A stretch of DNA of 64,000 nt from Deroplatys truncata (taxonomy: Eukaryota > Arthropoda > Insecta > Mantodea > Mantidae). Both the position numbers and the translations under genes were made by a program. Under the pieces are notes generated by a model. It ran no database searches. It saw only the letters and a program-made list of their open reading frames with translations, and was not told where the DNA came from. Location of the stretch: contig CM060975.1 of the NCBI GenBank assembly GCA_030765065.1, forward strand, positions 196,634,507 through 196,698,506, written 5' to 3'. Below are positions 10,358 to 61,307 of this stretch, piece by piece (the stretch's first letter is position 1; each line of letters opens with the position of its first letter).

Positions 10358-11306
10358 ACTTCTCTGCTACGTATTGTATTCCACCCAAAAATTTGATATC
10401 GAGATTTCATCGGAAATACATGTTTTGAGACCCCCTGAATCCAAAAAAAGGCATTTTTGGAAACATGTCCGTGTGTGTGTGTGTGTGTGTGTGTGTCTGT
10501 GAACAGCTTAACTCAGAAACGAACAGTCAGATAAACACCAAACTTGGTATTTAGGTTCAGTATCTTCCAGAGATTCGACATGAAGGTTTTCAAGAAAATC
10601 CCACCCCAGATTACCCCAGATTACCCTTTACATGGAACATTTTTCAAATATTTTAATTTTCTCAAAAATGGCTCTAACGATTTTGATTAAAATATCATAT
10701 CTTTAAGATATTTTCATGACAAATAAAATGTATATCTTGAATTTTCTGGGAATGTCTCCGAAAGTATTCATTGTGAACGACTCTTGCATAACTGGTAAAC
10801 CATAAGAGATAGACAAACGTTTACTGCACAAAAATGTAGATCGTGTTAAAATACACAATTTATGTCATATACATTTTTTTTGTTGAGTGAACCATTTTCG
10901 AGATATTACTTGTTATTCCCTTAAATTTTTCAATATTTATTTTCTCAAATGGGAATTCCTTATTCATTCTTTTGTCTTGGAAATGCAAAGAGTATCAATC
11001 TGTGGCAAAGAGAATGGAGCTGCACATAGCAACCAGCTATTAAGAAATATGTCTATGCCTAAAGGCTACTGTATTTCTATATTGCCCTTGCAAATAAATA
11101 CAAAACAAGAGGAACATTGTATACCTTAAGCGATAGTCAAATATTTTTTAGAACTAGTCGCTATGTGTAAAATGTAATTGTCTTTCCATGTCAAAAGATC
11201 GTTTCTGCAAATGTTTATCTCGATTAATATGAAATAGATGGAGAATAAGAGTTTGTAAAAATAGTTTGTACAAGAGTGGAGAAAGTCATGTGAGTGTAAC
11301 ACATGA
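10358..11306 (-). repeat. CA element, subfamily A
   Basis: Near full-length minus-strand copy with (GT)n at about 10472-10496 and the A-type left half. It ends at the reverse complement of GTGTTACACTCAC near 11300. Confidence 0.85.
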
Positions 11307-11549
11307 CTTTTTCCACCTACTTTCGTTAATCATGATATAAAAACCTTCGCCAGACATACCTTCATTTATCTTAAGTTTACAGCGGCACAAAAACATGCTG
11401 AGATAATCACCTGTTTAAAATGTAAGGTAACATATGCTAACCACAATATTACGTAACTCTGTATGAGCTCAAGGGAAATAAAAGAACAATCGCGTAATAT
11501 TTTGAAGTGTAGTGCTTGAGGCATTGGAAGCTTAAACGACAACGAATTT

Positions 11550-25145: not shown

Positions 25146-25380
25146 AAAAGAAAGAACGACTTACCACTTGAAAAGGGATTATGTGTTCAAAGATTCAAAC
25201 CATGAAGAATATCTAAAAAATAGTTAATGACAACAATTTTTATTCAACTAAAATTTTTGTGTCCTTTAACAAGTACCGCATGTTTTGCGTAGTAAGATTT
25301 TGTCTACCTCTTACGGTTTACCGGTTATACAAAATACATTCAGAATGAAGAGGACTGCACAGGCTATTCCCAGAAAATTC
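25146..25380 (+). repeat. CA element, middle fragment
   Basis: Middle part of a plus-strand copy (AAAATTTTTGTGTCCTTTAAC, TACGGTTTACCGGTTATAC, GAATGAAGAGGACTGCACAG). It ends abruptly at CCCAGAAAATTC, where sequence of opposite orientation begins. Confidence 0.7.
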
Positions 25381-25826
25381 TCTAAAAGTGTTCTTCATTG
25401 TGAACAACGTTTGCATAACTGGTAAATCATAAGAGATAGACAAAATTTTACTACACACAAAACGTAGATTGCGTTAAAATACACAATTTATGCCATATAC
25501 ATTTTTTGTTGAGTGAACCATTTTCAAGATATTGCTTGTTATTCCCTTAAATTTTCCAATACTTATACTATTTCTCAAATGGGAATTCGTTATTCATTTT
25601 TTTGTCCTGGTAATGCAAAGAGAATGGAATACTCCACATAGCAACCAGCTCTTAAAATATTTGACTATCGCTTAAAGCCTACCAATTCCCCTTGCAACTA
25701 TAAGAAAATTAGCAATAAGATTAACATCTCGATATCTCGATTAACATGAAGCATATGGAGAACAAGCGTTTGTAAAAATAGTTTGTACAAGAGTAGAGAA
25801 AGTCATGTGAGTATAACACATCAGAT
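25381..25826 (-). repeat. CA element, subfamily A, left half
   Basis: Minus-strand left half from the GTGTTCTTCATTGTGAACAA block to the complement of TCTGATGTGTTATACTCAC at 25826. It is joined head-on to the plus-strand fragment at 25380. Confidence 0.8.
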
Positions 25827-26867
25827 TTTTTGTTTTGGATGAATAATTGATACTGACATAATTATATGATGGGCTACCCTGAAACCAAAAATCGTAAAAA
25901 GATTTAAAATACTCCATACATATATCGCCTTATTGTCCAATAATGATAATTTGAGTTCGAGTTCCAGTACCACTTCCAACTGTCATCTATTAAAGACAAA
26001 ACTCAAAACGGAATAGCAGATAAGTATGAAATAAGTCCAGCATCTTTCAAGGATGTGAGAAAGATTTCAGGATATAAGTCCTACCCAAATAATCCTTTAC
26101 ATAGAAGCTCTCTCCGTTATTTATTTTTTCTCAAAATGGCTTAAATAATTTTGATTGAAATTTTACATATTTGAAACGTTTGCTTAGTAAATAAAATATA
26201 GTGTTAATCCAATTTATTTTGATGGCTTTTACACAAATGAGAAGTCATAAGAATTAGATAAAAACGTATTATGTAAAAAGGGCAGATACATTCATATATG
26301 CAAGTTTTTAGCATCAAAAATTTCCAAAGTGTTCTTTGGATTGTCCAATACCTTAAGAGTACTGAAACAGTTGTTATTAAGGTTTTATTATAAACACCAG
26401 GAAATAGAAGCGAGTGTTTTGCCTTCCAAACACAGTGTTGAAAATACGAATCTATAATTTCAAACTTCGTTACGAATTAATTTGCAGGGTATCCTTCCTG
26501 ATTACAGGTCTTCTGTTATTGGCCAGACCATGCTTCATAATATACTGTTCAGTTAATGTTCACTGAAATGAGAGCAGCATGATGAGCTTGCGTTGATTAG
26601 CAGCAACATGGTAATTACTAGCCTCATTAACAGACCAAAAGAAATTAATTGCCAAGTGCCAATCTGCTCGGCTTCAGGCAATGTTTGCTGTCTATTTAAA
26701 TAATAATGTACATTACGTACATATGTACGTAATGTAAATGTTAAATAATTGTTACTTTCTCTCGTTTATCAACTGATAAAGTCAGAAATTCTCATAGGCA
26801 GCTACAACTATTCAAAGTTGGAGCCAGTATTCATTCATTATCTGTTTACCCTCCTCTTATGTAGGAC
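25827..26867. other. Intergenic DNA with a degenerate CA-element relic and a palindrome
   Basis: 25828-25925 is inverted relative to 27945-28045. 26000-26200 is a weak minus-strand CA-element relic (TCCAGCATCTTTCAAGGATG, TTACATAGAAG). A perfect 28-bp palindrome lies at 26709-26736. No gene is supported. Confidence 0.45.
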
Positions 26868-34298: not shown

Positions 34299-34500
34299 GT
34301 GAAGTGTTATTTATTCGTGTGAAGGATTAATAAATGGAGTGAAGTAAAAATTATAATTTGTGTAGGCCTACGTTCTTTAGCCGCACCATCTCCTGTTAAG
34401 AAATACATGTTTCTACAAATTAATACAGCAGCCGAGGCAAACATAAATATAAATAATATTTAAAGAAACATAAAAATACTAAGTTGATTTCTAAAACTTG

Positions 34501-34585
34501 GGGCGAAGGCCACCGGAAAAGTAAACTTCGGGCGAAGGCCACCGGAAAAGTGAACGTTGGGGCGAAGGCTATCGGGAACTTTGTA
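34501..34585. repeat. Short tandem repeat, about 29-bp unit, three copies
   Basis: GGGCGAAGGCCACCGGAAAA starts at 34501 and again at 34530. A diverged third unit (GGGCGAAGGCTATCGGGAAC) starts at 34560. The unit length is 29-30 bp, so the reading frame is not kept across units. Confidence 0.8.
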
Positions 34586-34743: not shown

Positions 34744-34775
34744 CATATGTTTTGAGACCCCCTGAATCCAAAAAA
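34744..34775 (-). repeat. CA element, small inverted fragment
   Basis: CATATGTTTTGAGACCCCCT followed by GAATCCAAAAAA is the complement of part of the right half of the element. It is joined to the 5' end of a plus-strand copy at 34776. Confidence 0.7.
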
Positions 34776-35703
34776 TCTTATTTGTTACACTCACATGACT
34801 TTCTTACTCTTGTACAAAATATTTTTACAAACCCTTATTCTCCATATGCTTCATGTTAATCGAGATATCGAGATGTTAATCTTATTGCTAATTTTCTTGT
34901 AGATGCAAGGGGAATTGGTAGGCTTTAAGCTATAGTCAAATATTTCAAGAGCTGGTTTCTATGTAGAGTATTCCATTCTCTTTACATTACCAGGACAAAA
35001 AAATGAATAACGAATTCCCATTTGAGAAAAAGTATAGGTATTGGAAAATTTAAGGGAATAACAAGCAATATCTCGAAAATCATTCACTCAACAAAAAAAT
35101 GTATATGACATAAATTGTGTATTTTAACGCGATCTACGTTTTGTGTGTAGTAAACTTTTGTCTACCTCTTATGGTTTACCAGTTATGCAAACGTTCAAAA
35201 TGAAGAACACTTTTGGAGACATTTCCATAAATTTCAAGACATATTTTATTTGTCCTAAAAGTATCTTAAATATATGATATTTTAATCAAAATCGTTGTAC
35301 ACATCGCCCGTCACTCTCATCATCAAGCTGAGATAAGTCGTAACAAAGTAAGTGTACCGGAAGGTGTACCTAGAAAGTAGATATTAGAACTATTTTTGAG
35401 AGAAGTAAATTTTTCGAAAAATTTTCCATGTAAAATGTAATCTGTGGTGGGGGATTTTCTTGAAAACCTTCGTGTCGCATTTCTGGAAGATACTGAACCT
35501 AAATACCAAGTTTGATGTTTATCCGACTGTTCATTTCTGAGTTATGCTGTTCACAGACACACACACACGGACATCTTTCCAAAAATGCTTTTTTTGGATT
35601 CAGGTGGCCTCAAAACACGTATTTCTGGTGAAATCTCGGTATCGAATTTTTGAGTGGAATGCAATACTTCCCCTACTTATGTACTATACGTAGTAGAGAA
35701 AGT
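34776..35703 (+). repeat. CA element, subfamily A, with mitochondrial insertion
   Basis: Near full-length plus-strand copy that ends CGTAGTAGAGAAAGTAAAAA. It is normal except for about 85 bp of foreign sequence at 35297-35385 between ATCGTT and AGAACTATTTTTGAG. Those parts adjoin in other copies (ATCGTTAGAGCCATTTTTGA). Confidence 0.85.
35297..35378 (+). rRNA. Nuclear insertion of mitochondrial 12S rRNA 3' end (NUMT)
   Basis: The segment has the strongly conserved 3' end of small-subunit rRNA in its mitochondrial form: GTACACATCGCCCGTCACTC, then GAGATAAGTCGTAACAAAGT, then GTACCGGAAGGTGTACCTAG. Cytosolic 18S rRNA reads differently after the GTACAC block. It is a fragment of about 80 bp, not a gene. 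It sits inside a CA element, followed by about 7 bp that match neither source, and two T residues at 35295-35296 could be shared by host and insert. The composition suits arthropod mitochondria; this is recognition of the conserved core, not a database match. Confidence 0.9.
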
Positions 35704-35711
35704 AAAAAGTT

Positions 35712-35795
35712 GGTTGATCTGCGGGATTTGAACCTGAGATGTCCCAAATGTGGCCACAGACGTTAAAGCCTGGGCCCCCTGCTCGATAAACACTC
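35712..35795 (-). repeat. tRNA-like SINE fragment
   Basis: The complement contains a B-box-like GGTTCAAATCCCGC and an upstream head-like stretch. It lies just beyond the CA element. Confidence 0.45.
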
Positions 35796-35804
35796 CTTGT
35801 TAAA

Positions 35805-36396
35805 CGAGATAAACTTTTATTCACATTCGCTGCAATATAAGAAAGATACACTAGGCTAGAGCGATAGTCAGATTTTTACAAAAGTTTATCCCTATGTGAT
35901 GACTTTGAAATTCCGGGCTCTTTGCACGACCATGAGAAGAAACGAAGAGCGACTTTCCACTAGTGAAAGGTATAATTGTTTTGAAATACAAACCAATAAC
36001 AAAGAACATTTCCGAAATTGTTAGCGTTACAAATAATTTTATTTTACACAAAATGTGTGCTTTAACGAAATTTAAATTTTTGTGTAGTGAGATTCCATCT
36101 CTTACGGTTTACTACTTATGCAAAAGTGATTCAGAATGAATAGGATTTCACAGGCCATTCCCTGTGAAAATTCAAGATATTTTCTTGAATGAATTTTCAA
36201 GAAAATTCAGAATAAACGTTTTGTTTATCATAAAAATCTCTTATATATATTGTATTTGAATCAAAATCGTTAGTCATTTTTTATAAAATCGAAAGGAACG
36301 AAACATTTCTCATGTTAGGTGTAGTTTTGAGTGGATTTTCTTGAAAATCTTTTGGCATCATTAGAAGACGCTGTACTTAACCGACCTTTCGTTTTT
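35805..36396 (+). repeat. CA element, truncated, variant left part
   Basis: Plus-strand copy whose left region matches the 24180-24420 copy (GAGCGATAGTCAG, GTGATGACTTTGAAATTCCG). It stops at CCGACCTTTCGTTTTT, just before the (CA)n slot. Confidence 0.7.
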
Positions 36397-37190
36397 ACTT
36401 TCTCTACTACTAGAGAAGGTATTGCATCCACCAAAAATTCGATACTGAGATATCACCAGAAATAATACATGTTTTGAGGCCGCCTGAATCCAAAACCCAA
36501 ATTTTAAAAAAAAAAGATCCGTGTGTGTCTGTGTGTGTGAACAGCATAACTGAAACACGAAACATCGGATAAATATCAAATTGTAATTAGGTTCAGTACC
36601 TTCCAAAAATGCGACACGACGATTTTAAATAAAATTCCCCAAACCAAACTACCCTTTACATCGATCATTTTCAAAATTTTTTATTTTATAAAATGGCTTT
36701 AACAATTTTGATTAAAATACCATATATTAGAGATATTTACATGGCAAATAAAATAATATTTTGAATTTTCTGGGAATAGCCTGTGAAATGCTCTTTATTC
36801 GGAAGGAATTTTGTATCATCTTGTATAAGGCAAACATTAAGCAATGGACGAAAGCGTACTCCACAAAAAATGTAGATCTTTTTTTAAAAAAAACACACAA
36901 TTTATTACATATAGCTTTTTTGTGACATCGGCCATTTTCGAGTTATCCGTTATTAGCGGTTCTATTTGTTCAATACCTGTCATTCTTTTTAAGTCTGATC
37001 GATTTTCAGTTGTTTCTCGCGATTGCATGGAAACAAAATGGAATTTTAAGGCAACGTATATAGCGTCCAGTTCTTAAACATTTGACTACTGTTGTTCTCT
37101 TTATATTCTAACGAAATGTGTAGTGTAGCTATTTTTTCAAAGATTTATCTGGATTAAAATGAAGTGCATAGTAAAATTTCGTAAGAATGT
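36397..37190 (-). repeat. CA element, subfamily B
   Basis: Minus-strand copy that starts directly where the plus-strand copy stops (ACTTTCTCTACTACTAGAGA hairpin). It has a short (GT) slot and the B-type left half. Its 5' end is cut near 37190. Confidence 0.8.
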
Positions 37191-38874
37191 GTGGCCGGGC
37201 GTTGTCACTCATTATTGTTTCACCCTAAACATCACTAATTGGCGATGAAATTTGCTGGCGTAACATTTCTGGCATTAAAAAAAAAGAAAAAAAAAAGAAT
37301 CACTGATCTGATTTCACACACGCAAGGGACATGCGGACCGTTCGATTGTTCTGAACATTTCGAAGCACTCTAACAACAGGAAAACACGCCCAAAGCTGCG
37401 TCTGGCTTCCTAATGAATGGAGGAAGTGATCGCGCATGCCCAAAATCGCGACTGCAGCGCTGCAGCGACAAAATATTTAAACGGTAGTTACTTTAAAAAC
37501 ATGCCTCGTATTTCTACTGTTGTTCTAAGTGTTGTTTACAGTTTGATCTCTTTTCTATTATGCGATCATATACATTAAACATTTTTGGCTTTTGTCTGAC
37601 TCATGCTTGTTGTTTGCGATCTATTCTTTGGTAACCTTCAAATTTTCTAATGATTATAATTTCGGCTGGTTATATTTATTGTATTAACTATTGGTTACAG
37701 TACAAGTTGCAATAATATATTCATGCTGGAACAGGTATTATTCTATATAATTAAATAATGTTTCTCTCCGTGCTTTATTTGCTTACAGTTCTTAATATAG
37801 TGCCATTTATACGCCTAAAAGTTAGATTTTAATCCTGGATCTTCCAGATAAGTTATAATGAGCGCCAAATAATCTAAATGCATCACTTGTTTTATTATTT
37901 AACACTAGTTTAACTCTTGTGTATACACTTAAGCGCTGTACTTCAAAACTTTTGTCAGAAAGATTCATACCTTTACAGTCGGATAATACAAAAGCATAAG
38001 TGTAAAAATGTATCAATCCCTGTTTTTGACAATGTTGCTTATTATTCCTACCTTTGAAATGCAACTTTTGTGCCATGAAAGTAAGAATGTGCTGTAAAGC
38101 GTGGGGGCTAGTTATTTAAGGGAACACACGACTAGGAGTAAGAAGTTGCACTTTCATCACAATCGAGAATCGAACCACACGTTCCGGCTCCTGATTATGA
38201 CTTCTTGCCCCGTCTTTCGTGATAGCTAAAGCAAATGCTCGCTTTTCTTTAAAAACCCTTTGGCAGCATTCACATTTACGTAAGCTTTGGGGTGAAAAAG
38301 TAACTTAAACCACGTCACTGGATTTATTTGGTTAACCTGAAATCAGGAGTATAATTTTTCTAAACACAAAGGCAAATAGGTAATTTGTCCCACGGAAATA
38401 CATCTAATCTCCTATGAAAATATCTTCAAAAATATGTAGCCATGTTGTAAGGCTCGAAACATAAATTGAATAAATAAATGCATACAAAATGGAACTTATT
38501 CTTTTGTCTGCAATAATGGCTACGTGCACACACTACACACATATACAGGTCAACTTTTTCAACTAGACACGGCAGAAACGCAGAGGAGGAGAAGAAAGTC
38601 TAGGGTGGAGGGAGAACAACTGACAATATTCCCCTTACGTGGAACAACATTCACTCGGAACGCATGGTGATGTCACCTTTTCTCACGTTGTATACGCGCC
38701 TGCCGCTCTGTTACTACTGATCCAACACCCCTCCTGGAAGATAAATAGACCTGTTCAGCTACTGCGCATATAGATAAGTGTGTCAGGACGAAAAAGAAAT
38801 CGGTCTGTACGTACTTATTAGCGAGCAAAGCAGAAAGTCTCCGAATTACCATCTATTACCTCTATTTACATAGG
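37191..38874. other. Intergenic DNA, nothing firm
   Basis: The complement of about 37194-37214 reads SDNARPH, a motif of mariner-type transposases, but too short to support a call. A B-box-like GGTTCGATTCTCG on the complement of about 38165-38180 hints at a SINE relic. No gene is supported. Confidence 0.35.
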
Positions 38875-46214: not shown

Positions 46215-46327
46215 AGTTAAAACTCCCTTGAGTTAAGAGAGTAAAAACTCCACCAGTAAAGTTGTTTCCCAAATCAAAGCGATCATATGAACATAGCAGT
46301 TAAAGGGAGCAATACAACCTGAAAAAA

Positions 46328-47193
46328 TCTGATGTGCTACACTCACATGACTTTCTTTACTCATGTACAAACTATTCTTACAAACGCTTATTCTCCATAT
46401 GCTTCGTGTTAATCGAGATATCGAGATGTCAATCTTATTGCTAATTTTCTTGTAGATGCAAGGGGAATATGGTAGGTTATAAGCGATAGTCAAGTCTTTT
46501 AAGCGCTGGTTGCTATGTGGCGCATTCCAATCTGTTTGCATGTCCAGGACATAAAAAAAAATGAATAACGAATTTGAGAAAAAGTATAAGTATTGGAAAA
46601 TTTAAGGGAATAACAAGCAATATCTCGAAAATGGTTCACCCTAGAAAAAATGTATACTACATAAATTGTGTATTTTAACGCGATCTGCATTTTTGTGCAG
46701 TAAAATTTTGCCTATCTCTTATGGTTTACCAGTTATGCAAAAGTCGTTCACAATGAAGAATACTTTTGGAGACATTCCCAGAAAATTCGAGATATACATT
46801 TCATTTATCATGAAAATATTTTAAACATATGATATTTTAATCAAAATCGTTAGAGCCATTTTTGAGAAAATTAAAATTTTCGAAAAATGTTCCATGTAAA
46901 GGGTAGTCTGGGGTGGGGGATTTTCTTGAAAACCTTTGTGTCGCATCTCTGGAAGATACTGAACCTAAATACCAAGTTTGGTGTTTATCCGACTGTTCGT
47001 TTCTTAGTTATGCTGTTCACAGACAGACACACAGACACACAGACACACACGCAGACACACACACGGACATGTTTCCCAAAATGTTTTTTTTATTCAGGGG
47101 GTCTCAAAACATGTATTTCCGGTGAAATCTCGGTGTGGATTTTTTGGGTGGAATACAATACTTCCCCTACTTACTATACGTAGTAGAGAAAGT
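46328..47193 (+). repeat. CA element, subfamily A, near full length
   Basis: One of the best-preserved copies: TCTGATGTGCTACACTCACA start, motif ACTTTCTTTACT, interrupted (CA)n at about 47025-47062, 3' hairpin and AGTAGAGAAAGT end. It is useful as the reference for subfamily A. Confidence 0.9.
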
Positions 47194-47457
47194 AACAATC
47201 AAAAAGTATAAAAAAACTGTGGGTTATTTATTACCGAAATAAATAAAACAGTTAAGAACAAAAACAGAATATTCAGGTTTTAAATTAAGAACCACTAATC
47301 TCGTTAAACAGTTGCTCAATACGATCAACCAAAACCATGTTTACTATGCGAATTACTGTGGAAATAAAATATAAACCGTATTTCTTTTGTTTAAGCATAA
47401 AAGTACTCTAAAACAAAAACAAAAATTGAGCTAAAATTAAAACGTATGCTGATGTTG

Positions 47458-49027: not shown

Positions 49028-49839
49028 ACTTTCTCCACCCAAAAATTCGATACCGAGTTTTCATTGGAAATATATGTTAGGAGACCCCTGAATCCAAAAA
49101 AAGGCATTTTTGGAAACATGTCTCTGTGTGTGTGTGTGTGTGTGTCTGTCTGTGAACAGCATAACTCAGGAACGAACAATCGGATAAACACCAAACTTGG
49201 TATTTAGGTTTAGTATCTTCCAGAGATGCGACACGAAGGTTTTCAAGAAAATCCCCCCACCCCAGATTACCCTTTACATGGAACATTTTTCGAAAATGTT
49301 AATTTTCTAAAAAATGGATCTAACGATTTTGATTAAAATATCATATGTTTAAGATATTTTCATAACAAATGAAATGTATATCTCGAATTTTCTGGAAATG
49401 TCTCCAAAAGTATTCTTCATTGTGAACAACTTTTGCATAACTGGTAAACCATAAGCGCTAGACAAAATTTTACTACACAAAAAATGTATATCGCGTTAAA
49501 ATACACAATTTATGTAATATACATTTTTTTATTGACTGAACCATTTTCGAGATATTGATCGTTATTCCCTTAAATTTTCCAATTCTTTTTCTCAAATCAG
49601 AATTTGTTATTCATTCTTTTTATGTCCTGGACATGCAAAGAGAATGGAATCCGCCACATAGCAATTAGCTCTTAAAAGATTTGACTATCGCTTAAAGTCT
49701 ACCATATTCCCCTTGCACCTACAAGAAAATTAGCAATAAGATTAACATCTCGATTAACATGAAGCATATGGAGAATAAGCGCTTGTAAAAATAGTTTGTA
49801 CAAGAGTAGAGAAAGTCATGTGAGTGTAACACATCAGAT
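49028..49839 (-). repeat. CA element, subfamily A
   Basis: Minus-strand near full-length copy with (TG)n at about 49125-49145, ending in the complement of ATCTGATGTGTTACACTCAC. The right-end hairpin is partly deleted. Confidence 0.9.
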
Positions 49840-49964
49840 TTTTTATATCCTATTTCTTTTGTAATTTTTAACTTATTATGTAAACACCTGAAGTGTGAGA
49901 AAATCATTTCAAATTTGCATTCTTCCAAACTAAGAAACTGTTGCAATAAACTTATTTTTAAAAA

Positions 49965-50406: not shown

Positions 50407-50521
50407 CAAAAGTGCAAGAAACCCAACCCAACGACAAGAATTAACACCATTAAGTTCCAAAGGAAAGACCGCCGATAAGGCCAATGTAGTTAAGGCGGGG
50501 TATAAATGGAACTAAAAAAAA

Positions 50522-51252
50522 TCTGATGTGTTACACTCACATGACTTTCTCTACTCTTGTACAAACTATTTTTACAAACTTTGTTCTTATTCTCCATATA
50601 CTTCATGTTAATCGAGATAAACATTTGTAGACTCTATCTTATTGCTAATTTTCTTGTAGATGTAAGGGGAATATATATTTACAAGGGCAGTATAGACATA
50701 CAGTAGCGTTTAATCATAGACATTGCTCTTAATAGCTGGTTGCTAGGTGCAGTACCATTCCCTTTGCCACAGATTAATACTCTTTGCATATTCAAGACAA
50801 AAAAATGAATAACAAATTCCCATTTGAGAAAAAAAGTATTGAAAAATTTAAGGGAATAACAAGCAATATCTCGAAAATGGTTCACTCAACAAAAAAATGT
50901 ATATGACATAAATTGTGTATTTTAACGCGATCTACATTTTTTGTGTAGTAACATTTTGTCTATCTCTGATGGTTTACCATTTATGCAAAAGTCGTTCACA
51001 GACATTCCCAGGAAATTCAAGATATACATTTTATTTGTCAAAAAATATCTTAAACATATGATATTTTAATCAAAATCGTTAGAGCCATTTTTGAGAAAAT
51101 TAAAATTTTCGAAAAATCTTCCATGTAAAGGGTACTCTGGGGTGGGGGGATGTTCTTGAAAACCTTCGTGTCGCATCCTTGGAAGATACTGAACGTAAAT
51201 AACAAGTTTGGTGTTTATCCGACTGTTCGTTTCTGAGTTATGCTGTTCACAG

Positions 51253-51293
<41 letters not shown>

Positions 51294-51420
51294 CATGTTT
51301 CCAAAAATGCTTTTTTGGATTCAGGGGGTCTCAAAACATGTATTTCCGATGAAATCTAGGTATCGAAATTTTGGGTGGAATACAATACTTCCCCTACTTA
51401 CTATACGTAGTAGAGAAAGT
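50522..51420 (+). repeat. CA element, subfamily A
   Basis: Full-length plus-strand copy: TCTGATGTGTTACACTCACA start, ACTTTCTCTACT, (CA)n at about 51256-51290, hairpin, AGTAGAGAAAGT at 51420. Confidence 0.9.
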
Positions 51421-51526
51421 AAAAAACTGAGTTAGGAGTGGAATTAAATGTGTTTTCATAATATACCAGAGTAAATCAACTGGTTTCATCAGGTAAATCG
51501 AATACAGGCAGATATATTTCCGCAAG

Positions 51527-53732: not shown

Positions 53733-54423
53733 TCTGGTGTGATACATTCACATAACTTTCTCTACCCTCTTATCATTTATTATTGAGTGCACAAGCTATT
53801 TTAGTAAAGGTTATTTTTCTGTTACATTTTAATCCAAATAAACATTTTCAGAAATAACTACATTACACATTTCGTTATAGATACAAAGGGAAGAGCAACA
53901 GTCAAATGTTTAAGATCTGGACGCTATACAGTGACCTAAAAAATCCATATACTGTTTCCATGCAACCGCAAGACACAACTGAATGCTATGAGGATTTTAA
54001 AGAATGACCAAGTAACGAAAAATTCGAACCTTTAATAATGGATATCTCTGAAACCTCTTATGCCACAAAAATACTTATTTGAAGTAAATTGTGTGTTTTA
54101 AAGTATTGTGAAGTACGTTTTCGTCTATACCTTAATGTTTAGCAGTTGTACAAGCTTATACAAAATGTCTCTCAACTGAAGTGGACTCCGCAGACTATTC
54201 CCAGAAAATACAAGATATACATTTTATTTGTCGTGTAAATATCTTTAATAATTTGATTTTAATCATAATTTTAGAGCCATTTTAGTACATCAAACATTTC
54301 AAAAAACTTTCCATGTAAAGAGTAGTTTGGGGTAGAGGGAGTTTTGAAAATCTTCGTGTCCCATGCTAAATACCAGTTTAGTATTTATCCGAATCTTCGT
54401 TTTTAGAGTTATGCTGTTCACAG

Positions 54424-54478
<55 letters not shown>

Positions 54479-54627
54479 TATACACACACGGACCTTTTTG
54501 TAAAAATGCTTTTTCTTCTTTTTTTGGATTCAAGGGCCTCAAAAAATGTATTTCCGTGAAATCTCGATATCAATTTTTTGGGTGGAATACAATACTTCTC
54601 CTACTTACTATATGTAGTAAAGAAAGT
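53733..54627 (+). repeat. CA element, subfamily B (first unit of a tandem pair)
   Basis: Starts TCTGGTGTGATACATTCACA, has a long (CA)n at about 54425-54474, and ends TATGTAGTAAAGAAAGT at 54627. Five A residues separate it from the next unit. Confidence 0.9.
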
Positions 54628-54632
54628 AAAAA

Positions 54633-55486
54633 TCTGATGTGTTGCATTCACATGACGTTCTCTACTCTTGTACAAACTATTTGCAGAAACGGTTATTCCC
54701 CACCTACTTCGTGTTAATCTACATAAGCATTTGCAGTATCTTATTGCTAATTTTCTTGTGGGTGCAACGAGAATATGGTAGGATTTAAACGATAGTCAAA
54801 TATTTTAAGAGCTGGTTGCTATGTAGAGTATTCTATTCTCTTTGTATGTCTGGGAAAAAAACAAAACATAAAAAAGACTAACGACTTCCCGTTTGAGTAA
54901 AAGCATAAGTATTTTGGAAAATTCAAACAAATAACAAGGAATATTTCGGAAATAGTTCGCTCGACAAAAATAATGTATGACATAAATTGTGTATTTTAAT
55001 GAGATCTACATTTTGTGTATAGTAAAGTTTTGTCTATCTCTTACGGTTTACCAGTTATGCTAAGGTCATCCAGAATAAAGAGGATTTTGGGGAATATTCC
55101 CAGAAAATTAAAATATATATTTCATTTGTATGAAAGTATTTTAAACATAATATTTTAATTAAATTATTAGAGCCATTTTGAGAAAATAAAAAATTTAGAA
55201 AAATGCTCTATGTAAAGGGTAGTCTGGAGTGGCCGAATTTTCTTAAAAATCTTCGTGTCGCATCCTTGAAAGATATTAAATTCAAATACAAAGTTGGTAT
55301 TTATCCGACTTTTCGCTCTTGAGTTATGCTGTTCACAGATAGACAGACGGACAACAGATTTCCAAAAATTCTTTATTTGGATTCAGGGCACCTCAAAACA
55401 TGCATTTCGGTGAAATCTCGGTATCGAAATTTTGGGTGGAATGCAATACTTCCTCTATTTACTTTCCCCTACGTAGTAGGGAAAGT
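54633..55486 (+). repeat. CA element, subfamily A (second unit of a tandem pair)
   Basis: Starts TCTGATGTGTTGCATTCACA directly after the A5 end of the preceding B copy, and ends CGTAGTAGGGAAAGT. The (CA)n slot is nearly absent (AGATAGACAGACGGACAAC). Confidence 0.9.
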
Positions 55487-55625
55487 GAAAACTGGTATCC
55501 ATCTATTCCTAACTCCTAGATAAAATTAATGAATTCAACAAGTTAAAATGTAACAAAATACTCCATACTAATCTAAACTACTTTCTAATCACTAGCTTGC
55601 AGCTGTAAACTTACTGATATCTGGA

Positions 55626-58145: not shown

Positions 58146-60872
58146 TTTACATTCCCACGGCAGCAGAGTGCAGCACAGCAAACCAGAGGACAGCTTTCAC
58201 CCAGAGAACAGACCCAGATCCTAACAGACATCCAAGAACACCACGCTTTTCAAGAGCCACGGCAAACGCGGTTTCTGAACTCTTCCGAGAATGATACGCC
58301 CGAACAAAATCCATTGATTCCTCAGGAAAAACTCTTTATCGAGAGCCAGTCTCCAAGCTTTGAGATTCAAGGATCCCAACAGAACCTATTTTCACAACAA
58401 CAGACTCAGCAACAGGTGAATCAATTCCAAAAACCACAAAATTCCTTTTCAGTTCTAAGCCAGATACCACCAAACACACAGTATCTACGCTTTTACCCGG
58501 AGAAGCAAAAAGGTCAAGCACAATCAGTTGAGTCCACAGAATTTCAACAAAGTCAGTTCTCACAAGGTGCAGCCCAGAATCAAAATCCAGTAGTACAGTT
58601 CCAGCAGCAGGATACTGTAAGCCAGTTCAATCCTCAATATTCCTCTGGTAATTCTTTCTTTCAACAACAATCCCAGCAACCCTTAAATAATATTCAACAG
58701 CAGTCTGCAGTCCCTGTTCAATCACCGGTGTTGCCCACGCAGTCTGTCTTTACGCAACAAAATTTCGCGCCCATTCCTCGTGAGCCTTCCACACAAATTA
58801 GCTCGTTTCAGCAATCTGGATCTTTGGGTCAAAGACAACCTGCATTTTCAACGGTTTCACCAGAATTGGTTACAAACGTACAGGTCCAGAAAGGAGTATC
58901 GAACACCCAGTTCTCAATTCAACGTTCTATCTCAGACCCAGCGGAACTGCAGAAAATACAGGAACTGGAACAGAAGCGGCAACAAGAACAAAGAGAATTT
59001 TTATTGAAACAGCAACAAGAACTGCAAAGATTGTTGCAAGAACAGAGAGAACGTGAGGAGAAGCGATTAAAGGAACAACAGCGAATGCTTTCTAAGATAT
59101 TATACACTCCGGATTCAATTAATGTTGCTCAAGTACGAGCGATGAGCTCGACAACGCCAAAGCCTATTCAAGTAACGGCATCTACAGCTAGCTTTGTACC
59201 TGATCAATCTTCCAAACGCAGGCCTTATCAGACGCAGATAGGCGGAAATTCAAATCAGGCCGACCTCAAGCCCTTGAAACCCCGCAGCAGAGAGGATACT
59301 GTAGGTCCTACTATTGCCCCGGAAGAACAAATACTGCTTCAGAATGAAAGACAAAAATTATTCTATCAGCTGAAGGAGACACAGCAGCAGCGACAAAAGC
59401 AGAAATTACAGCAGCAGCAACAACAGCAGCAGTCAGAAAAACAAGAAACAGCGACATTACGTGAACAGGCAACACAGGCTGTCTTAAGTAAACTGGAACA
59501 GCGAAGACAACAGGAGAAACTCCAGCAGCAGAAGCAAGTTCAAGATCAACTTAACAGACAGTTTCAACAACAGTTAGTACAACGCCAGGATCTTTTACGT
59601 CAACTGAGAGTTGCTGTTACTAATGCTGAACCTCCAGAAGGCAACTCAGTACCAGCGTTATCAAACACGTCAAGTCAGTCGTCGCCTATCATTCTTCCAG
59701 ACGGACAGAAACTTCAGCTTGATCAGCTTCTGAAACAAGTCAATCCTACAGGTAATTCAAAAAGTGGTTCTCCAAATATTAAAATAGTGGAGCTACCGTC
59801 ACCAACCAGCACCCCAAGACCACCTCAAGTTCTTTTTGAAGAGCTTACAAAGGGAGTCTTGCCACCAGGAGCAGACTTTGAAATTATACGACATAAGCAG
59901 GATGGCGGTTTGGAGGAGGTGGGAAAGCAAAATCTACCAGTGTCGCAAAAGAAAGTAACATTTGTTTTTCTAGAGGAGCAATCTGATGGATCATTCAAGG
60001 TAAGGGGCGTAAAGGGCAACGCAGATGGACAACCAGGGGAGAGCCCTGCGCCGGTGGATGTGGATTCTATTATCAAGAAACTTCAAGACGGAGACATTAA
60101 ACTACCGACAAGGGATTCATCTAACTCAGTGACCGCATCCTCGACATTGCCGCCATTCTATCAATCCCAGTCCACTCAGATATCATCAAAACAGGCTGTT
60201 TCACAATCCTCATCAGCGGTAGCTGCTGCCACACCATCACCAAATATCATCGGCAATTCGGTGACAAATAATCCAAACTTGGCTTTCTCACAGCAGAAAC
60301 AAAGTGCGAACGGTATAACACACGGGAATATGGAAATTCTACCTTCTGTAAGCTTTTCCACATCCAGTCCTGCGACTCCTGATTTCCAGCAAATTTCTGA
60401 GCAGCAACTGGATCCAAATCATTCCAACAGTCCTTATTCAGTAGAGGTGCAAGGACCTCCTGTAGCTCAAACACAGCATGTGTCACATTTTCATCAAAAT
60501 CATTTGGTCCATCCTTCTCCAGTTCCATCACTCAGACCGTCATCCGCATCTATAGACTCCGCTGTTCAGTACCAACAGCAAGAACCGCAATTGCAACAAC
60601 ACAGACAACAACACCAACAAGTATATCAGGAGCCGCAACAACAGTCGCAGCAATCCTATCGACCTCAGGAGCATCACGAGCAAGACAGTAGGCAACAGCA
60701 GCCATCTAAACCTCCCAATAAGATAATAAAGCTCTCAGTTCCATTCTTCCCTACAAATCCCTCCTTTGCTGCCAAAGCTCCTACACCTGGAATAGTCTAT
60801 GCAAGCTCCACCCAAGGACCACGTGTGCAGATTAGCGCAGAAGAACAAACACGGCAGGACAGCAGTGATAAG
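58146..60872 (+). CDS. Internal exon of a large Gln-rich low-complexity protein
   Basis: A single open exon of 909 codons, phase 0 at both ends, between acceptor TTACAG (to 58145) and donor AAG|GTGAGA (from 60873). Beyond the donor the frame runs only 28 codons to a stop. Exon residues 1-260 are Gln/Ser/Pro-rich without structure. Residues 265-318 form a charged, Gln-rich coiled-coil stretch (around QKRQQEQREFLLKQQQELQR). Residues 393-495 form a second one with a Gln8 run. Residues 512-628 are more complex and probably the conserved part (IILPDGQKLQLDQLLK, LPPGADFEIIRHKQDG, KKVTFVFLEEQSDGSFKV). 808-853 is Gln/His-rich. No enzymatic domain, signal peptide or membrane segment is visible; the N- and C-termini lie in exons not recognised here. 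The protein looks like a long arthropod structural or extracellular low-complexity protein, but I cannot name the family. Composition is GC-richer than the surroundings, as expected for real coding DNA. Confidence 0.85.
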
Positions 60873-61307
60873 GTGAGAAAAATTACGCATCTTCTTTTAT
60901 CGTTGATAAATCTAAAAACATATTTTATGAGTTATTTCATAATTAAAAGAGGCTAAATGAAAAAAGCATACTAACTTCTTATAATAAACTTAAAATTAAT
61001 CATAATGACTCATTTAAAGCCGCAATGCTACTATTCCATCCATTTTAAATATACTTCCTTCATCCTTAAAGTGTCATTCATCCGTGCATTGGTTCAAAAT
61101 ATTCATATAATATTGTTTGTGGAATACACATAAAGACTTAAAAATATCAATAAGGAGGACTTGTAGTAAAACAAACGACGGTTTTGTGCTATAGCAAGAG
61201 CAAATATTCCCTTTTTTCACTGATCACTGCCGCAAAGCCAGCCGGGTTTCAAAATGTTCACGAGATCAATTAAAATCTAGACGGAGATCATTGCACATAA
61301 AAATAAT
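60873..61307. other. Intron or downstream DNA
   Basis: Starts with the GTGAGA donor. AT-rich, no further exon recognised. Confidence 0.5.

What the first reader, a model, noticed from the sequence alone, without database searches (positions are those of the whole stretch)
35297..35385. Fragment of mitochondrial 12S rRNA inside a repeat element
About 82 bp with the conserved 3' core of mitochondrial small-subunit rRNA sits inside an otherwise normal CA element, between ATCGTT and AGAACTATTTTTG, which adjoin in other copies. A shared TT at the left edge and about 7 unmatched bases at the right edge look like end-joining capture of mitochondrial DNA at a break. Because the target is a known repeat, the insertion can be resolved to a few bases, which is rare for so small a NUMT.
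Basis: partly seen in the sequence, partly recalled or inferred. Interest (0 to 1): 0.7.

Follow-up and report, generated by a model that had tools for sequence, protein, structure and literature searches.

The report
Tiny mitochondrial rRNA insert in repeat
An 89-base scrap carrying the end of a mitochondrial ribosomal RNA gene has been pasted into one copy of a common repeat, most likely during repair of a broken chromosome; this looks like a clean but ordinary example of a well-known process.

Summary
One copy of a ~0.85-kb repeat ("CA element", 34771-35708) carries an extra 89 bp at 35297-35385, or equivalently 35295-35383, because TT stands at both edges. The 20 other copies in the window that span the junction all lack it. 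About 83 bp of it (35295-35377) is the 3' end of a small-subunit rRNA, with the shortened helix 44 expected of an animal mitochondrial 12S rather than a bacterial 16S. A 12S primer site used in Drosophila matches 18 of 20 bases; a second core matches 29 of 32; neither pattern occurred in 100 shuffles. The last 6-8 bases (TAGATA or TAGATATT) are unassigned and not copied from the flanks beyond chance. Best explanation: a very small NUMT captured at a double-strand break by end joining, with no target loss visible and at most 2 bp of microhomology or duplication at the left edge. No mitogenome was available and the own-genome search did not complete, so donor borders, RNA versus DNA origin, age and genome-wide copy number stay open. 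A new member of a known kind; low interest.

The parts
34771..35708 (+). Host repeat copy (CA element, about 850 bp without the insert), interrupted by the insertion
   Evidence: Matched by other copies in the window on both strands; nearest junction-spanning copy 959-1805 is 92% identical over 836 columns
35297..35385 (+). The 89-bp insertion (equivalent placements 35295-35383 and 35296-35384)
   Evidence: Absent from 20 of 20 other junction-spanning copies; placements computed
35295..35377 (+). 3' end of mitochondrial small-subunit (12S) rRNA, sense strand: GTACACATCGCCCGTC core, shortened helix 44, AAGTCGTAACA core, helix 45 and start of the 3' tail. TT at 35295-35296 may belong to the repeat instead. 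The tail 35370-35377 is assigned by recall.
   Evidence: SSU rRNA covariance model 37 bits, E = 1e-9 on 181 bp; primer-site and core pattern matches at 35299-35318 and 35335-35366
35378..35383 (+). Unassigned bases TAGATA between the 12S tail and TT: filler nucleotides or the first bases of mitochondrial trnV
   Evidence: Sequence; no template in the 100-bp flanks beyond chance
35384..35385 (+). TT at the right edge, repeating TT at 35295-35296: 2-bp target duplication or microhomology

Best explanation
A NUMT: a short piece of mitochondrial DNA carrying the 3' end of the 12S rRNA gene was captured at a double-strand break inside an existing copy of the repeat and sealed by end joining. Compared with most other copies nothing of the target was lost. 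TT is shared or duplicated at the edges, and 6-8 bases at the right end are either filler or the first bases of trnV. It has no evident function. Shown: a clean 89-bp insertion relative to paralogous empty sites, and mitochondrial-type rRNA content. Inferred: double-strand break, end joining, DNA rather than RNA donor, nuclear location.
For: Empty sites in 20 of 20 other junction-spanning copies in the window. SSU rRNA match with short helix 44. Match to a mitochondrial 12S primer site used in Drosophila and to a second core. No poly(A) stretch at the 3' end and a duplication of 2 bp at most. A NUMT review (PMC2820518: passages; [quoted passage not shown]
Against: No mitogenome was available to align, so identity rests on conserved rRNA cores. 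The covariance match is below the gathering score and was not listed in two larger scans. The recognisable 12S stops close to where the mature RNA should end (recalled), which an RNA donor would also give. No reads were available.
Confidence: 0.8

Rival explanations
1. RNA-derived insertion: the 3' part of mature 12S rRNA was reverse-transcribed (by a LINE-type enzyme or a repair polymerase) and inserted, 5'-truncated, with a few extra bases at the 3' end.
For: The recognisable 12S stops near its expected mature 3' end (recalled) and the copy is 5'-truncated, as retrocopies often are (recalled). RetroSeeker (PMC11727581, passages only) proposes putative retrotransposed mitochondrial rRNA in the human genome.
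Against: No poly(A) tail and no duplication longer than 2 bp; that paper's figure marks its examples by poly(A) and target duplications. A fragment border near a gene border can arise by chance because mitochondrial genes lie close together (recalled).
Confidence: 0.12
2. Assembly or library chimera: a mitochondrial fragment joined artificially into the repeat.
For: Single copy in the window; no reads could be examined.
Against: It would need two artificial joins that leave the repeat unbroken on both sides. Both halves match the same five near copies (959-1805, 10360-11312, 46322-47198, 49034-49844, 50516-51425), although the best match of the left half, 25373-25832, does not reach the junction.
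Confidence: 0.05
3. The segment is part of a subfamily of the repeat and was spread by it.
For: Only copies within this 64-kb window could be examined.
Against: The five nearest junction-spanning copies in the window (86-92% identical) and the 15 more distant ones are empty.
Confidence: 0.03

Closest known systems
NUMT (nuclear mitochondrial DNA segment) inserted by end joining
   Same: Mitochondrial-type sequence inserted in a non-mitochondrial context, no target loss visible, little or no homology at the joints (compare PMC2820518)
   Different: Very small; its empty site is read from paralogous repeat copies rather than from a related species
Retrotransposed mitochondrial RNA (putative, RetroSeeker, PMC11727581, passages)
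   Same: Mitochondrial rRNA content, here the 3' end with 5' truncation
   Different: Lacks the poly(A) tail and the target duplication by which that paper marks its examples

Membership tests
NUMT | Sequence homologous to mitochondrial DNA | tested here: met
   SSU rRNA match with short helix 44; 12S primer site 18 of 20 and core 29 of 32. Not aligned to the species' own mitogenome, which was not available.
NUMT | Present as an insertion in other DNA | tested here: met
   Flanked on both sides by one repeat copy; 20 of 20 other junction-spanning copies in the window are empty
NUMT | The surrounding DNA is nuclear | not testable with these tools
   Inferred from a 64-kb repeat-rich window; source organism not given and own-genome search not answered
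NUMT | Little or no target loss at the insertion site | tested here: met
   89-bp gain relative to 12 of 20 copies, 88-93 relative to the other 8
NUMT | Joints blunt or with 1-7 bp of microhomology | tested here: inconclusive
   TT stands at both edges, but the donor sequence beyond either edge is unknown
NUMT | Confirmed by reads across both junctions | not testable with these tools
   No reads held
Retrotransposed mitochondrial RNA | Poly(A) tail at the 3' end | tested here: not met
   35378-35385 reads TAGATATT
Retrotransposed mitochondrial RNA | Target-site duplication of several bases | tested here: not met
   At most TT

The most novel reading that the evidence does not exclude
The 3'-terminal ~80 nt of mature mitochondrial 12S rRNA was captured as RNA or cDNA at a break without LINE hallmarks (RNA-templated repair), its right border coinciding with the mature RNA 3' end and followed by a few non-templated bases.
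Probability: 0.1. Interest if true: 0.45.

Novelty: new member of a known kind. Interest (0 to 1): 0.2.

Why it matters
In my judgement NUMTs this short are easily missed and hard to resolve at their borders. A high-copy repeat gives many paralogous empty sites, so the pre-insertion sequence is known almost to the base. Applied genome-wide, the same trick could give a census of very small captures at breaks. As a single case it agrees with what is already accepted.

Tried and rejected
Bacterial or endosymbiont 16S rRNA: rejected, because in the helix-44 region 66 model positions stand against 4 letters; that a short helix 44 marks animal mitochondrial 12S is recalled.

Locally templated filler (polymerase-theta style): TAGATA and TAGATATT have matches of 5 and 6 bases in the 100-bp flanks, but 1584 and 1080 of 2000 single-base shuffles of the flanks reach as much. 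AGATA also occurs within the insert itself; no control was run for that.

Age of the insertion: this copy has 29 private substitutions in 660 gap-free columns against its five nearest junction-spanning copies (those five have 15 to 28), about 4.4%. With only some tens of conserved rRNA positions in the insert, absence of visible decay cannot show that the insert is younger than the copy.

Folding of the insert alone is no stronger than shuffles (z = -0.37; 68 of 200 shuffles fold at least as well).

Finding a related mitogenome: patterns in viral contigs and genome contigs gave 0 matches, which says little since neither collection is of animals; literal strings in papers gave 0.

It put a spurious TT into the joined query, and does not affect the alignment of the copies.

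Full report
Observation. The sequence at 35240-35420 reads as one repeat copy interrupted by a segment with conserved small-subunit rRNA cores. BLAST of this copy against the window shows other copies matching up to the left junction and resuming at the right junction. nhmmer with the insert-less element gave 36 matches, of which 2 are the halves of this copy, 20 others span the junction and 14 do not. In a MAFFT alignment the 20 of 20 others have no letters in the columns of 35299-35381; several of the nearest read CG-TT-AGAGCCA at the empty site, where this copy has TT-AGAACTA, two transitions away. Removing 89 bp restores CGTT|AGA, and three placements are equivalent because TT stands at both edges. 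The stated coordinates 35297-35385 are one of them. The length difference is 89 for 12 of the 20 copies and 88-93 for the other 8. My first boundary (87 bp) was wrong by two bases and is corrected.

Identity. cmscan of 181 bp gives SSU rRNA with 37 bits and E = 1e-9, aligned over both cores and helix 45, with 66 model positions in the helix-44 region against 4 letters. The alignment also draws in, at lower confidence, repeat sequence left of the insert that other copies share. The match is below Rfam's gathering score, and two larger scans did not list it. The primer 12SBI, seen as a mitochondrial 12S primer in a Drosophila paper (PMC2605931, one passage; 16 papers hold the primer with '12S' and 'insect', listing only), matches with 2 mismatches in 20 at 35299-35318; a second SSU core matches with 3 in 32 at 35335-35366. 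Each pattern has one match in the window and none in 100 shuffles. The short helix 44 argues for animal mitochondrial 12S over bacterial 16S; this rule is recalled.

Borders. The left edge lies in the TTGTACAC core; the TT may come from the repeat, the mitochondrion, or both. At the right, 12S-like sequence runs to about 35377 (the tail after helix 45 is assigned by recall), then TAGATA, then TT and the repeat. The extra bases are not copied from the flanks beyond chance. In the usual arthropod gene order (recalled) trnV follows 12S, so they may be the start of trnV; this could not be tested.

Mechanism. A gain without visible target loss and with at most TT shared at the edges fits numt capture by end joining as reviewed in PMC2820518 (passages; section 13 whole). 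The fig-wasp study PMC7600805 (passages) reports 109 to 628 NUMTs per genome in the species named there and that neighbouring TEs affect NUMTs after insertion. An RNA donor is the main rival: RetroSeeker (PMC11727581, passages) proposes putative retrotransposed mitochondrial RNAs in humans, marked by poly(A) and target duplications that are absent here. PMC10751365 (two passages) cites L1 integrations without endonuclease that lack target duplications, so their absence does not fully exclude a reverse-transcription route.

Age and reality. The copy has 29 private substitutions in 660 columns, so the repeat copy is not brand-new; the insert cannot be dated without the mitogenome. A chimera would need two joins that leave the repeat intact, which is unlikely but untested by reads.

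Verdict. Observation confirmed; interpretation supported; an ordinary though unusually well-resolved tiny NUMT. Paper searches on NUMT insertion were used for context only; I make no claim that such a case is absent from print.

Noticed in passing
window 58314-60956 (+): An 880-aa open reading frame, very rich in glutamine, with no Pfam match at E 0.01; perhaps an exon of a host gene.
   Followed up: partly
window 34748-34775: Just left of the repeat copy lies a 28-bp stretch that matches, in reverse complement (93%), an internal part of the same repeat (35590-35617), possibly a remnant of another copy in opposite orientation.
   Followed up: no
window 54335-55494: Two copies of the repeat lie head to tail, one ending about where the next begins.
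   Followed up: no
window 35776-36485 and 50517-51429: Other repeat copies carry private insertions, among them 37 and 27 bp of unknown source.
   Followed up: no
window 34494-34569: A 29-bp tandem repeat, 2.6 copies, about 200 bp left of the element.
   Followed up: no
window 37239-37326 (+): Weak SNORD19B-like match, 26.9 bits against a gathering score of 50, E = 0.83; probably chance.
   Followed up: no
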